The notes under the pieces are model-generated. The model was not told the DNA's origin. It saw only the letters and a list, made by a program, of their open reading frames with translations, and ran no database searches. Shown here in pieces: positions 5,248 through 8,976 of a stretch of 64,000 nucleotides of DNA. A program made the translations under genes and the position numbers. The first letter of the stretch is position 1. Each line of letters begins with the position of its first letter. Where the stretch lies: positions 4,092,001 to 4,156,000 of the forward strand of contig CP095846.1 in the NCBI GenBank assembly GCA_023100825.1, given 5' to 3'. This DNA is from Nocardioidaceae bacterium SCSIO 66511 (GTDB lineage: Bacteria > Actinomycetota > Actinomycetes > Propionibacteriales > Nocardioidaceae).

Positions 5248-7113
5248 ATGCCCAACCGACCAGACCTTCGCAATGTCGCCATCGTCGCCCACGTCGACCA
5301 TGGCAAGACGACACTCGTCGACGCGATGCTCCGGCAGTCAGGCGCGTTCCAGTCGCACCAGGAGGTCGAGGAGCGAGTCATGGACTCCGGCGACCTGGAG
5401 CGGGAGAAGGGCATCACGATCCTGGCCAAGAACACCGCCGTGCGTTACTCCGGTCCCGGTGCCCCGGATGGCGGCGTCACCATCAACATCATCGACACCC
5501 CGGGTCACGCCGACTTCGGTGGCGAGGTCGAGCGAGGCCTGTCGATGGTCGACGGCGTCGTGCTCCTCGTCGACGCATCGGAGGGCCCGCTGCCCCAGAC
5601 CCGCTTCGTGCTGCGCAAAGCGCTCGCGGCGCGGATGCCGGTCGTACTCGTCGTCAACAAGGTCGACCGCCCCGACGCCCGCATCGCCGAGGTCGTCGAC
5701 GAGACGTACGAGCTGTTCCTCGACCTGCTCGACGACTCCGCCGACCAGAACGCCCTCGACTTCCCGGTGGTGTACGCCTCCGCAAAAGCCGGCGTCGCAT
5801 CCCTCGTGCAGCCCGCCGACGGCGAGCTGCCGGATTCGCCGAACCTCGTGCCGTTCTTCCAGACCATCCTCGACGCTGTCCCGGCACCGGCGTACACCGA
5901 GGGCGCCGCGCTGCAGGCACATGTCACCAACCTCGATGCGTCGCCCTTCCTCGGGCGCCTCGCACTCGTGCGCGTACGTGAAGGTGAGCTGCGCAAGGGC
6001 GCATCGGTCGCATGGTGCAGGCGCAGTGGCGCCATCGAGCGGGTGAAGATCACCGAGCTGCTGGTGACCGAAGCGCTCGACCGCGTACCCGGCGAGCAGG
6101 CCGGCCCGGGCGACATCGTCGCGATCGCGGGCATCCCCGAGATCAACATCGGAGAGACCCTCGCCGATGCGGAGAACCCCGAGCCGCTGCCCCTGATCGC
6201 CGTCGACGAGCCCGCGATCTCCATGACGCTCGGCATCAACACCTCCCCGCTCGCTGGGCGGGAGAAGGGTACGAAGGTCACCGCGCGGCTGGTCAAGGAC
6301 CGGCTCGACCGCGAACTGGTCGGCAACGTGTCGATCAAGGTGCTCCCGACCGACCGACCCGACGCCTGGGAGGTCCAGGGCCGAGGCGAGCTGGCGCTCG
6401 CCATCCTCGTCGAGCAGATGCGACGGGAGGGCTACGAGCTGACCGTCGGCAAGCCACAGGTCGTCACCCGCGACATCGACGGCAAGCTGCACGAGCCCGT
6501 CGAGCGACTGACCATCGACTGCCCGGAGGACTACCTCGGCACCGTCACCCAGCTGCTCTCGGTACGCAAGGGCCGGATGGAGCAGATGACCAATCACGGC
6601 ACCGGTTGGGTACGCATGGAGTTCCTCGTACCCGCGCGCGCCCTGATCGGCTTCCGTACGGAGTTCCTCACCGACACCCGCGGCACCGGCATCGCGCACC
6701 ATGTCTTCGAGGGGTACGAGCCGTGGGCGGGTGACCTTCGTACCCGCGCCTCCGGCTCCCTCATCGCAGACCGCGCGGGTGCCGCGTCGTCGTACGCGAT
6801 GACGAACCTGCAGGAGCGGGGAACACTGTTCGTCGAGCCGACCACCGAGGTCTACGAGGGCATGATCGTCGGAGAGAACTCCCGTGCCGACGATATGGAC
6901 GTCAACGTCACCAAGGAGAAGAAGCAGACGAACGTCCGCTCCAGCACGGCGGACTCCTTCGAAAAGCTGATCCCCCCGCGACTGCTCAGCCTCGAACAGT
7001 CGCTGGAGTTCTGCCGCGAGGACGAATGCGTCGAGGTCACTCCGGCCTCCGTACGCATTCGCAAGGTGATCCTCGACCAGAACGAACGCGGCCGGGCTGC
7101 GCGCCGGCGCTGA
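5248..7113 (+). CDS. typA: Translational GTPase TypA/BipA
   Basis: 621 aa from the ATG at 5248, which gives the family-typical start 'MPNRPDLRNVAIVAHVDHGK'; an in-frame start at 5140 would add 36 unlikely residues. G1 is AHVDHGKTT (14-22), followed by 'DTPGHADFGGEVER' (G3) and 'VVNKVDRPDA' (G4), then EF-G-like domains II, III and V and the TypA-specific C-terminal region. It is a ribosome-associated GTPase involved in ribosome assembly and stress or cold adaptation. It ends in the basic tail 'QNERGRAARRR'. A 14-bp GC palindrome follows at once. Confidence 0.95.
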   Translation: MPNRPDLRNVAIVAHVDHGKTTLVDAMLRQSGAFQSHQEVEERVMDSGDLEREKGITILAKNTAVRYSGPGAPDGGVTINIIDTPGHADFGGEVERGLSMVDGVVLLVDASEGPLPQTRFVLRKALAARMPVVLVVNKVDRPDARIAEVVDETYELFLDLLDDSADQNALDFPVVYASAKAGVASLVQPADGELPDSPNLVPFFQTILDAVPAPAYTEGAALQAHVTNLDASPFLGRLALVRVREGELRKGASVAWCRRSGAIERVKITELLVTEALDRVPGEQAGPGDIVAIAGIPEINIGETLADAENPEPLPLIAVDEPAISMTLGINTSPLAGREKGTKVTARLVKDRLDRELVGNVSIKVLPTDRPDAWEVQGRGELALAILVEQMRREGYELTVGKPQVVTRDIDGKLHEPVERLTIDCPEDYLGTVTQLLSVRKGRMEQMTNHGTGWVRMEFLVPARALIGFRTEFLTDTRGTGIAHHVFEGYEPWAGDLRTRASGSLIADRAGAASSYAMTNLQERGTLFVEPTTEVYEGMIVGENSRADDMDVNVTKEKKQTNVRSSTADSFEKLIPPRLLSLEQSLEFCREDECVEVTPASVRIRKVILDQNERGRAARRR

Positions 7114-7122
7114 GGTTTCGTC

Positions 7123-7136
7123 CGCGGCCGGCCGCG
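7123..7136. terminator. GC palindrome after typA
   Basis: CGCGGCCGGCCGCG is a perfect 14-bp palindrome 10 bases after the typA stop. It could form a short terminator hairpin, but there is no U-run, so this is weak. Confidence 0.35.
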
Positions 7137-7189
7137 ACGGTTCTCCGCGCGACATCTCGACTGCCCGATTTCGGTGCGCTGTCGGCTTT

Positions 7190-7675
7190 CCCGCTTGCTC
7201 CGGCTGGGCAAAGACGCGGCGACGCGGGCGCTGTACCTACGCGCTCGGGTTCGGCGCCGGCTAACCCGATTCCGTTGGCTTTTGCAGGGTCGGTGGTGGT
7301 GCTTCACCAAGTGAACATGGTGAAGTACCGCTTTGCATGGCAGGGACACCGTGCAAAGTTGATGGTTGCCGTGCTCGTTGGTACGTACGTGGCTGCCGTG
7401 GCAGGAGTTCACTCACTCGTACCGCCGCGCGCCGACCGTCGTGCGGTTTGCCTTGGGACCAAGGCAAACCGCAGCCCGCAGCCGTACGCCCCACGGCAAG
7501 TGGTCACTGTCCAAGGGACACTCGTCATGGACAGTGACAACCCGCCTTGGGAAGCGCCCAACCTTGCCCCGTAACCACCCCAAAGTACCGGGAAAGCCGC
7601 CAACCAACCCAAGCCGAAGAGCCACCTCCGCGCGTCGCCGCGTCTTTTCCCCAGCCGAAGGAGCGGGAAGGGTCG
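7190..7675. repeat. Imperfect inverted repeat enclosing an array of hairpins (gene-free region)
   Basis: No credible gene lies between the typA stop (7113) and the stop of the convergent coiled-coil gene (7834). The outer arms, about 7190-7275 and about 7583-7675, are imperfect reverse complements: both carry a TTCCCGCT block, then CGGCTGGG, then AAAGACGCGGCGACGCG, then a GGGTT...CGGCT palindrome. Between them lie four strong hairpins: 7298-7329 (11 bp, one G-T, loop 10), 7331-7358 (10 bp, one G-T, loop 8), 7442-7473 (15 bp perfect, loop 2) and 7504-7537 (10 bp perfect, loop 14). Whether this is a decayed mobile element, a structured RNA or a terminator cluster cannot be decided by eye. Confidence 0.6.
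7442..7473. repeat. 15-bp perfect hairpin, 2-nt loop
   Basis: Arms TGCGGTTTGCCTTGG (7442-7456) and its exact reverse complement (7459-7473) are separated only by GA. It is the strongest of the four hairpins in the region between typA and the DivIVA-like gene. A near-perfect palindrome of this size could extrude as a cruciform or act in RNA as a terminator in either direction. Confidence 0.75.
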
Positions 7676-7833
7676 ACAGCGACGAGGAACTGGGCAGACG
7701 GGTAGTCGAACCGAAGCTAAGGAACGCCGACAGCGTGCGGAGGCACGACGGCGGGTGGTCGTACCAACGGAAGCGGGAAAACCGGCGGCGCACCAGCCAG
7801 AAGCGTGGAGACGTCCTCCGAACGCCAGCGACG

Positions 7834-8976
7834 TCAGTCGTCGTCCGCTGGCTCCGGCCGGGCGATCTCGCTACCGAGCCCACCGACAAGATCGCGCAGG
7901 GAGGCGAGCTGGCCGAGGATGTCGTCGCGATGAGCATGGAACTCGTCGGCGTCCTTGCGGGCCGCCGCGAGCACCCGGTCGGCCTCGGACTGTCCGTGTG
8001 ACTCCAGCTGCGCCGCCTGTTGACGGGCTGCCGCAACGACTTGATCGGCCTCCTCACGGGCACGCGCGAGCGAGGTCTCGGCTTCGGCGCGGGCCTCGGT
8101 GAGGTGGCGCTCGGCCTGCTCGAGGACCTCGGCCGCATGCTGCTCCTCCGCGGCGACGCGCTCATCCATCTCTGTACGGAGCTGCTGCGTCTCCTCGCGC
8201 GCCGCATTGTGGCTCTCGGTCGCCTCGCGTACCAGGCGCTCCTTCTCGAGTGCCAGCGCTCGGCGCTCTTCGGCCACCTCACGTTCAGCGATGGCGCGTT
8301 GGCTCTCGGCCTCACGGGTGGCCGTCTTGGTCAGCGTCTCCGCCTCCTGCTGGGCGGACAGGCGCAACTGCTCGGCTTCTCGCTTGGCGTTGGCCAGCAG
8401 CTCATCCGACTTCTCGTGGGCGCGCGTACGCCAAGCCTCGACGTCGCCCTTTGCCTCATCGCGCAGGCGCTCGATCTCGGCGCGCTGGGTACCGAGGAGG
8501 GTCGCCGCCTCGTCTGCTGCTGCCGACCGCCGCGCGGCGCCAGCCTTCTCGCCCTCCTGCACAAGGCGTTTCGCCTCGATGCGCGCCTCGCCGATGATCT
8601 CGGCCGCCTGCTGCTCGGCGGCGGCGAACATCTTCTGCGCCTGCTCGCCCAGCCCGGCGTACGACGGGTAGGCCGACTCCGCGAGCCGCTCCTCGAGCAT
8701 CGTGATGCGTTCCTCGAGCTCGCCGATCCGGCGCCGAGCCGCCTGCGTCTCCTGACGCGACGTTGCCAGTGCTCCGTCGAGCTCACGAAGGTTCGCATTG
8801 CGGCGCCGGACGAACTCGTCGACGGTCGCCCTTTCGTACCCGCCGAGCTTGGCCACCGGGAATGCGGACTGCCCGGATTCCGCGGGCTTCTGCTGAGTGA
8901 GCGTTGCTGGTTCCTGGTGGCCGATCAAAGTACGTGCACCCCTCGCTGGTTTGTCCCGAGTCGCTGCCCCCAGCAC
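7834..8976 (-). CDS. DivIVA-like coiled-coil protein
   Basis: 380 aa from a GTG start. After about 40 poorly ordered residues comes 'FPVAKLGGYERATVDEFVRR' (about 40-58), which matches the lipid-binding N-terminal signature of DivIVA/Wag31 proteins. The rest, about 60-350, is almost pure Ala/Glu/Arg heptad coiled coil. In Actinobacteria, relatives such as Wag31, Scy and FilP organise polar growth and cytoskeleton. It is too long and divergent to be Wag31 itself, so a Scy/FilP-like scaffold role is inferred. The start is uncertain because alternative TTG/GTG codons lie downstream. It is convergent with typA across the hairpin region. Confidence 0.75.
   Translation of the reverse strand: MLGAATRDKPARGARTLIGHQEPATLTQQKPAESGQSAFPVAKLGGYERATVDEFVRRRNANLRELDGALATSRQETQAARRRIGELEERITMLEERLAESAYPSYAGLGEQAQKMFAAAEQQAAEIIGEARIEAKRLVQEGEKAGAARRSAAADEAATLLGTQRAEIERLRDEAKGDVEAWRTRAHEKSDELLANAKREAEQLRLSAQQEAETLTKTATREAESQRAIAEREVAEERRALALEKERLVREATESHNAAREETQQLRTEMDERVAAEEQHAAEVLEQAERHLTEARAEAETSLARAREEADQVVAAARQQAAQLESHGQSEADRVLAAARKDADEFHAHRDDILGQLASLRDLVGGLGSEIARPEPADDD

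What the first reader, a model, noticed from the sequence alone, without database searches (positions are those of the whole stretch)
7114..7833. Hairpin array inside a large imperfect inverted repeat between typA and a coiled-coil gene
Four strong hairpins (stems of 11, 10, 15 and 10 bp) lie within 240 bases, and the whole set is enclosed by imperfect arms (about 7190-7275 with 7583-7675) that share three blocks, including AAAGACGCGGCGACGCG. No gene fits. The region lies between two convergent genes, so it needs no promoter function. It may be a decayed mobile element, a structured noncoding RNA or an elaborate terminator zone.
Basis: seen in the sequence. Interest (0 to 1): 0.6.

Follow-up and report, generated by a model that had tools for sequence, protein, structure and literature searches.

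The report
Mobile palindromic repeat with nuclease partner
The hairpin cluster is one of more than eighty scattered copies of a palindromic DNA repeat that appears to descend from the ends of a little-noticed kind of bacterial jumping element, whose only gene is a nuclease-like protein that resembles an antitoxin.

Summary
In detail: hairpins and large imperfect inverted repeat are real (fold z -9.1). But the region is one of many: a model of its core hits 87 places in this 4.6-Mb genome. Tracing the core outward led to TIR-flanked elements across Actinomycetota: about 1.2 kb, one gene (AbiEi-like N-terminus, Vsr/I-Bth0305I-like C-terminus), inverted ends mostly 65-100 nt, most folding unusually well. 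End pairs were found at 29 of 29 fetched family loci with both flanks and 61 of 77 phylum-wide loci (score 26 or more; 67 displaced controls reach at most 20). In relatives, gene-less 88-120-nt copies carry the gene-bearing element's exact 17-nt ends (19 of 25 loci), and both kinds are absent from orthologous sites elsewhere. This genome has two close genes of the family; the window core resembles the ends of one, the middle hairpins (7427-7552) an end of the other. The window copy is thus best read as a nested, decayed, non-autonomous derivative. It works like RAYT/REPIN, but no Y1 transposase was found. That the nuclease mobilises the copies is inferred, not shown.

The parts
   Evidence: ORF list; gene calling
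7124..7283 (+). left arm of the repeat; includes AAAGACGCGGCGACGCG 7210-7226 (found with up to 2 mismatches in 36 of 40 copies)
   Evidence: family alignment, 40 copies; inverted repeat I1
7284..7401 (+). type-A core, the most conserved part; 7303-7385 resembles the left end of the gene-bearing element at G000:C1:3288542
   Evidence: alignment A1 of 40 copies, 86% mean column identity; 62 of 85 columns identical to the A left end, score 35.5 vs shuffled maximum 19; 9 and 17 against B ends, below shuffled maxima
7298..7329 (+). hairpin 1 (GGTGCTTCACC...GGTGAAGTACC)
   Evidence: pairs counted
7331..7358 (+). hairpin 2 (CTTTGCATGG...CCGTGCAAAG)
   Evidence: pairs counted
7427..7552 (+). type-B insert, present in long-form copies (B-like hairpin arm in 17 of 40); resembles the left end of the second gene-bearing element at G000:C1:2529871
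   Evidence: 84 of 126 columns identical, score 43 vs shuffled maximum 26; 19 and 15 against A ends, below shuffled maxima; long and short forms; other B matches
7442..7473 (+). hairpin 3, outer hairpin of the B-type end (15-bp perfect stem)
   Evidence: alignment with the B left end
7504..7537 (+). hairpin 4, inner hairpin of the B-type insert
7584..7745 (+). right arm, inverted counterpart of the left arm

Best explanation
7124-7745 is a degenerate, non-autonomous copy of a dispersed palindromic mobile repeat. Shown: its core model hits 87 places in this genome; the core resembles the ends of an element that carries one gene (AbiEi-like N-terminus, Vsr-like nuclease fold at the C-terminus); the middle hairpins resemble an end of a second, different element of the same kind; in relatives, gene-bearing and gene-less versions share exact ends and are present or absent at orthologous intergenic sites. 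Inferred: the nuclease recognises the hairpin-rich ends, probably as extruded or single-stranded hairpins, cuts or nicks them, and moves or copies both its own element and gene-less derivatives, preferably to gene 3' ends, much as RAYT is thought to do for REPINs. In this genome one type-A derivative gained long arms and, in some copies, a type-B insert, and multiplied; the window copy is one of these and no longer matches its nuclease's ends closely.
For: Copies: (87 places at E up to 7.5e-7, two of them the ends of gene element A; 40 of the 87 trained the model). Two pairs of copies are 91-92% identical over about 475 columns, with different sequence beyond. Paired ends: 29 of 29 fetched family loci with both flanks score 26 or more (2 of 31 cut by contig ends); 61 of 77 phylum-wide loci at 26 or more and 68 of 77 at 22 or more, against 67 displaced controls with maximum 20 and 141 random pairs in the window with maximum 17. 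Ends fold with mean z -4.8 and -4.4 (41 and 43 of 61 below -2) against -0.2 (3 of 54) for controls. Covariation 0.433 vs at most 0.099 when slid. Median span 1218 nt. Exact 17-nt termini shared by the gene element and 19 of 25 gene-less loci, 10 distinct sites by my grouping. Gene-element empty sites: G166, 84 nt where G125 has 1262; G143, 131 nt where G125 has 1322. Gene-less copy absent in the 5 relatives located of 11 tried, cleanly in G076 and G139. Fold Z 11.7 to I-Bth0305I, 10.2 to Vsr; conserved D, E, K residues invariant in 28 of 28; dN/dS 0.13-0.15. Window vs A and B ends. No repeat at the corresponding locus of G001.
Against: No target-site duplication could be defined; no cleavage, excision or transposition was measured. 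The window core is only 73% identical to the A left end (47 of 72 columns to the A right end, score 22 vs shuffled maximum 18.5), and the long arms have no known source. 9 of 77 phylum-wide loci show no end pair, nor does the distant homologue L112. Of 6 places picked because two core hits lay close together, 2 (L099, L100) do not enclose the nuclease gene. 6 of 25 gene-less loci lack one or both exact termini. Sites checked in G125 are mostly shared with sister species, so movement is slow. The 39 classed repeats in G000 show no excess between convergent genes (12 of 39, p 0.46). Within G000 only 1 of 30 pairs has a change on both sides. Foldseek alone gives the nuclease matches weak E-values (1.3 and 3.5); the strong Z values come from the second look. 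Gene calling was a crude script.
Confidence: 0.74

Rival explanations
1. A structured noncoding RNA family, dispersed in many copies, whose transcript is the functional part.
For: Strong fold. Several core pairs vary between U-G and C-G rather than to the A-C mismatch that the other strand would tolerate, which points to one strand being folded alone. Strong covariation across genera.
Against: No Rfam family. No sigma-70-type promoter pattern in 7000-7900 (0 found; other promoter types not covered). Copies lie in tandem, convergent and divergent contexts. Related hairpins occur in inverted pairs round a nuclease gene, which an RNA alone does not explain. Single-stranded DNA hairpins would covary too.
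Confidence: 0.1
2. Bidirectional transcription terminators at gene 3' ends that spread by gene conversion.
For: The window copy lies between convergent genes. Of 11 gene-less copies examined (10 in G125, 1 in G122), all 11 have a gene's stop end within 19 nt on at least one side and 7 lie between convergent genes. Gene-bearing elements lie between convergent genes at 29 of 52 loci.
Against: Does not explain the paired ends round a nuclease gene, the shared exact termini, or divergent-context copies (8 of 39 in G000). Terminator-like sites in the window region are no more than in shuffles (1 vs 0.8).
Confidence: 0.09
3. REPIN-like repeats left by a lost RAYT (Y1) transposase, with the nuclease gene an unrelated passenger.
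For: Architecture resembles REPIN/RAYT: palindromes, distinct single-copy enzymes, many small copies (REPIN paper read in passages).
Against: No Y1_Tnp match in the genome although the same search rang in 8 of 14 control genomes. The nuclease gene carries matching ends in many genera. Relatives were not searched for Y1.
Confidence: 0.04
4. An AbiE type IV toxin-antitoxin locus whose antitoxin binds the flanking repeats as operators.
For: AbiEi models match 28 of 28 proteins. AbiEi binds inverted repeats in its own promoter (AbiE paper read in passages).
Against: Median element span of 1218 nt leaves room for one gene. Ten neighbouring proteins scanned, one from each of 10 loci, include no AbiEii: 9 have other families, 1 none. 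The repeat lies on both sides of the gene and also occurs without it. A C-terminal nuclease fold is predicted.
Confidence: 0.03

Closest known systems
REPIN / RAYT (REP-associated tyrosine transposase) systems
   Same: Short palindromic intergenic repeats, many gene-less copies, distinct single-copy enzyme genes flanked by matching repeats or by long TIRs (passages read).
   Different: Enzyme is an AbiEi-like protein with a Vsr-like nuclease fold, not a Y1/HUH transposase; no Y1 match in this genome. Ends are mostly 65-100 nt, often with an outer and an inner hairpin. The main text of the 2013 survey does not contain the word 'Actinobacteria'.
MITEs of bacterial insertion sequences
   Same: Gene-less 88-120-nt copies with the exact 17-nt termini of a gene-bearing element.
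   Different: The parent gene is not a known transposase and no target-site duplication was seen.
Vsr-like homing endonuclease I-Bth0305I and Vsr repair endonuclease
   Same: Predicted fold of residues 202-320, Z 11.7 and 10.2.
   Different: Fused to an AbiEi-like N-terminus; flanked by palindromic ends; gene-less copies at many sites. That I-Bth0305I is intron-borne is recalled.
AbiEi antitoxin (type IV toxin-antitoxin AbiE)
   Same: AbiEi_4 in 28 of 28; fold match of residues 2-200 to 6y8q, Z 8.6, rmsd 6.7.
   Different: No AbiEii among 10 neighbours scanned; extra nuclease domain; mobile-type flanks.
TnsA of Tn7 (nuclease subunit of a transposase)
   Same: Same broad nuclease fold, Z 6.1, a level that the tool says may be a common arrangement only.
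   Different: One gene per element; weak match.

Membership tests
Dispersed mobile repeat (MITE-like) | Multiple copies at unrelated sites in one genome | tested here: met
   87 model hits; 40 copies placed against called genes
Dispersed mobile repeat (MITE-like) | Termini shared with a gene-bearing element | tested here: met
   Relatives: exact 17-nt termini at 19 of 25 loci in G125/G122/G131. The window copy itself: only 73% identity to the A left end
Dispersed mobile repeat (MITE-like) | Filled and empty orthologous sites | tested here: met
   Gene-less: G076, G139. Gene-bearing: G166, G143. Window copy: absent in G001, but two other frames lie there
Dispersed mobile repeat (MITE-like) | Target-site duplication | tested here: inconclusive
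   Intergenic sequence too diverged for a base-exact junction
REPIN/RAYT | Y1 (HUH) transposase gene in the genome | tested here: not met
   PF01797: 0 matches in G000, 8 of 14 controls ring
REPIN/RAYT | GTAG or CGTC tag beside the palindrome | not tested
   not scanned systematically
AbiE toxin-antitoxin | Adjacent AbiEii toxin gene | tested here: not met
   10 neighbouring proteins, one from each of 10 loci, none AbiEii; other loci and the second neighbour not scanned
AbiE toxin-antitoxin | AbiEi-type N-terminal domain | tested here: met
   28 of 28 at E up to 0.01 and 0.001
Vsr-like nuclease fold | Fold match well above unrelated rows over the whole domain | tested here: met
   AlphaFold2 model mean pLDDT 91.4; Z 11.7, 10.4, 10.2; Foldseek E-values alone weak
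Vsr-like nuclease fold | Endonuclease activity | not testable with these tools
   invariant D, E, K residues in 28 of 28 are suggestive only
Known Rfam RNA | Match above gathering score | tested here: not met
   4 matches at E up to 5, all far below gathering scores

The most novel reading that the evidence does not exclude
A previously unrecognised superfamily of transposable elements, widespread in Actinomycetota: a single AbiEi-fused Vsr-like nuclease recognises element-specific hairpin ends, moves itself and a population of gene-less palindromes into gene 3' ends, and is easily mistaken for an orphan antitoxin. Element-specific stems suggest that each nuclease has co-evolved with its own ends.
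Probability: 0.55. Interest if true: 0.9.

Novelty: new variant of a known kind. Interest (0 to 1): 0.76.

Why it matters
If true, it would explain a large family of AbiEi-like orphan genes in Actinomycetota as mobile-element enzymes, and add a nuclease fold that I do not know to drive such elements alone. It would also give Actinomycetota a RAYT/REPIN-like system with enzymes and ends that can be matched pair by pair, which makes the open question of how such palindromes spread directly testable. Practically, gene-less copies at gene 3' ends may affect termination and can be mistaken for RNA genes.

Tried and rejected
Rfam: nothing near threshold. Coding function of the 182-aa frame: set aside because copies such as L017 have a stop in it (read). 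REP/RAYT membership: not met for lack of Y1 transposase in this genome. Plasmid or phage carriage: 2 of 72,556 plasmid records with weak matches and 0 of 50,697 phage records at E up to 1e-5. NCBIfam: one match below cut-off among 4 proteins, 0 of 28 members at E 0.01. A first end-pair scan with assumed gene bounds gave 28 of 29; the exception L117 was a wrong offset and scores 74 with exact bounds. Ends of different loci also match now and then: 25 of 930 mismatched pairs score 24 or more. The six that involve L141 with L115, L116, L125 or L135 go with a shared gene, fba, in those flanks; my first guess, runs of N, was wrong; some others are between close relatives (L110/L114), and L127 with L130 (67) was not explained. 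A hunt for gene-less sites empty in G122 failed: L255, L256 and L259 are filled there too; L257 and L261 were not located. In the empty-site display 6 of 11 relatives' loci were not located by my pattern. Terminator and promoter patterns: no excess. Paper searches that listed nothing describing this system: (listings only; open-licence PMC texts). Papers read in passages: PMC3733652, PMC3116915, PMC12306157, PMC3985639. Actinobacterial DUF222/13E12 repeat genes as a parallel are recalled; one search gave nothing useful.

Full report
Observation. The hairpins and the enclosing inverted repeat are in the sequence at the stated places, and 7190-7675 folds far better than shuffled sequence, z -9.14. 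The region lies between two convergent genes.

It is a repeat. A search of the window's own genome with 7114-7833 scored 40 of 140 candidates and gave 40 full or partial copies, the window included (my grouping of its rows). They share a core at 7284-7401 (mean column identity 86% over 40). The arm block AAAGACGCGGCGACGCG is found, with up to 2 mismatches, in 36 of 40. Copies fall into a short form (middle about 56-76 nt) and a long form (152-216 nt); 17 of 40 carry a B-like hairpin arm in the middle. A covariance model of the core finds 87 places with E up to 7.5e-7 (my count of the rows; only 150 of 3618 first-look candidates were scored; 40 of the places trained the model). Two of the 87 are the ends of a gene-bearing element, which leaves 85, about one per 54 kb. 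The closest pairs are 91-92% identical over about 475 columns. Of the 40 copies, crude gene calling puts 19 between tandem, 12 between convergent and 8 between divergent genes, 1 unclear; this is not different from chance. In G001, the one other genome of the genus in my searches, the corresponding locus has no repeat; two other frames lie there.

Relatives. The core model hits 20 of 197 genomes searched, a draw from the family that includes the window's genome. The family is probably Nocardioidaceae: contig C43 of G006, a member, has 134,232 bases, as has JAURVT010000050.1, titled Nocardioidaceae bacterium, and the two carry the same ends. The window's species was not identified. On 46 matches in 29 fetched loci of other genomes, 90.3% of pair cells are standard pairs, 28 of 30 pairs show changes on both sides, and the covariation score is 0.433, against 0.131 in shuffles and at most 0.099 when partners are slid. 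These rows were picked and aligned by the model, and some are two strands of one place, which inflates the score. Within G000 alone only 1 of 30 pairs shows a double change.

The gene between paired ends. I looked at six places where two hits lie close together. Four, in G000, G001, G125 and G128, enclose one gene of the same family between hits in opposite orientation; two (L099, L100) do not. The protein matches Pfam AbiEi_4 at its N-terminus (one of four below the curated cut-off; 28 of 28 aligned members at E up to 0.01). Homologues, near or distant, occur in 58 of 61 family genomes. Of 31 homologous loci fetched (the best of a longer list), 29 have both flanks and all 29 have an inverted end pair scoring 26 or more with exact gene bounds. 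Of two distant homologues in G000, L113 has such a pair (59) and L112 does not (18). The two sets overlap in part. End lengths are 65-101 nt between the 10th and 90th percentile. Stems differ between elements while the two ends of one element agree. Ends fold with mean z -4.8 and -4.4 (41 and 43 of 61 below -2) against -0.2 for controls (3 of 54). Median span is 1218 nt.

Mobility. In G125, G122 and G131 the gene-bearing element ends in GGTTTACCAAGAGGTCA and its complement. Of 25 loci picked for gene-less copies, 19 carry both 17-nt ends exactly and are 88-120 nt long; they make 10 distinct sites by my grouping. Of 11 examined, all have a gene's stop end within 19 nt on at least one side and 7 lie between convergent genes. 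Where G125 has 1262 nt, the element with its borders, G166 has 84 nt between the same two genes, with flanks 82% and 88% identical; G143 has 131 nt where G125 has 1322. A 109-110-nt gene-less copy present in G125, G122 and G131 is missing in the 5 relatives located out of 11 tried; in G076 and G139 the two convergent stop codons are one base apart there. Gene-bearing elements across the phylum lie between convergent genes at 29 of 52 loci with both neighbours called (p 2e-6 against one quarter) and between divergent genes at 4 of 52. No target-site duplication could be read.

The protein. AlphaFold2 gives mean pLDDT 91.4. In the second-look aligner, residues 202-320 match I-Bth0305I (Z 11.7), a Neisseria endonuclease-like protein (10.4) and Vsr (10.2); residues 2-200 match AbiEi antitoxin 6y8q (Z 8.6). 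Foldseek alone ranks AbiEi first (1.2e-5) and gives the nucleases only E 1.3 and 3.5. Residues including GE, D, W, EFDG and KY are invariant in 28 of 28. dN/dS is 0.13 among the G125, G122 and G131 copies and 0.15 between G000 and G001, with dS 0.57-1.14, so the protein is kept functional; RAYTs too are described as single-copy, distinct enzymes (PMC3116915, passages). Ten neighbouring proteins scanned, one from each of 10 loci, include no AbiEii.

Back to the window. G000 has two close genes of this family, at 3288542 (A) and 2529871 (B), and two distant ones. The window core 7303-7385 matches the A left end in 62 of 85 columns (score 35.5, shuffled maximum 19). The middle 7427-7552 matches the B left end in 84 of 126 columns (score 43, shuffled maximum 26). 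The crossed comparisons (core with B, middle with A) stay below their shuffled maxima. B-type sequence also occurs at two places outside the A-type list, 3524236 and 1800516. The window copy is therefore read as a nested composite: an A-type derivative carrying a B-type end, inside long arms whose origin I did not find.

Mechanism. Shown: dispersal, paired structured ends round one gene, shared termini, presence or absence at orthologous sites, a predicted nuclease fold under selection. Inferred: that the nuclease acts on the hairpin ends and moves gene-less copies in trans. In several core pairs, variation runs between U-G and C-G on the + strand, which points to one strand being folded alone, as RNA or single-stranded DNA; the sequence does not decide between these.

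Known or new. In function it resembles RAYT/REPIN, but a Y1 transposase was not found in this genome. Ten paper searches of open-licence PMC texts listed no description of this system; most subscription journals were not searched.

Noticed in passing
L103, L115, L116, L125, L135, L141, L143, L152, L153, L171, L186: The gene-bearing element sits near fructose-bisphosphate aldolase (fba) in 10 of 113 loci (L125 and L152 are the same place), plus L103 by my reading of its translation, in both orientations: a recurrent site or a very old resident.
   Followed up: partly
L253-L272, L106, L107, L276, L280: Exact-ended gene-less copies fall in length classes 88, 107-110 and 119-120 nt; steps of about 21 and 31 nt would fit whole helical turns. 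Orthologous loci are counted more than once.
   Followed up: no
L239 (G141), between the convergent genes orthologous to those flanking the L102 element: A tandem array of a roughly 70-nt unit fills part of the intergenic region.
   Followed up: no
L254 (G125) and L268 (G122): The two loci share one flank and the gene-less copy but not the other flank, as if a rearrangement ended at the repeat.
   Followed up: no
L113 (G000:C1:956187): A distant homologue (25% identity) is also flanked by a 67-nt near-perfect inverted pair (score 59), so the wider protein family may be mobile too; L112 is not so flanked (score 18).
   Followed up: partly
window 7124-7283 and 7584-7745: The long arms look built of repeated units of about 50-60 nt in variable number (my reading); a short piece matches G006 (E 7e-4). 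Origin unexplained.
   Followed up: partly
G001:C1:1454962-1456302: Between the orthologues of the two flanking genes the sister genome has a permease-like and a DJ-1/PfpI-like frame (names from my reading of the translation) that are missing in the window.
   Followed up: no
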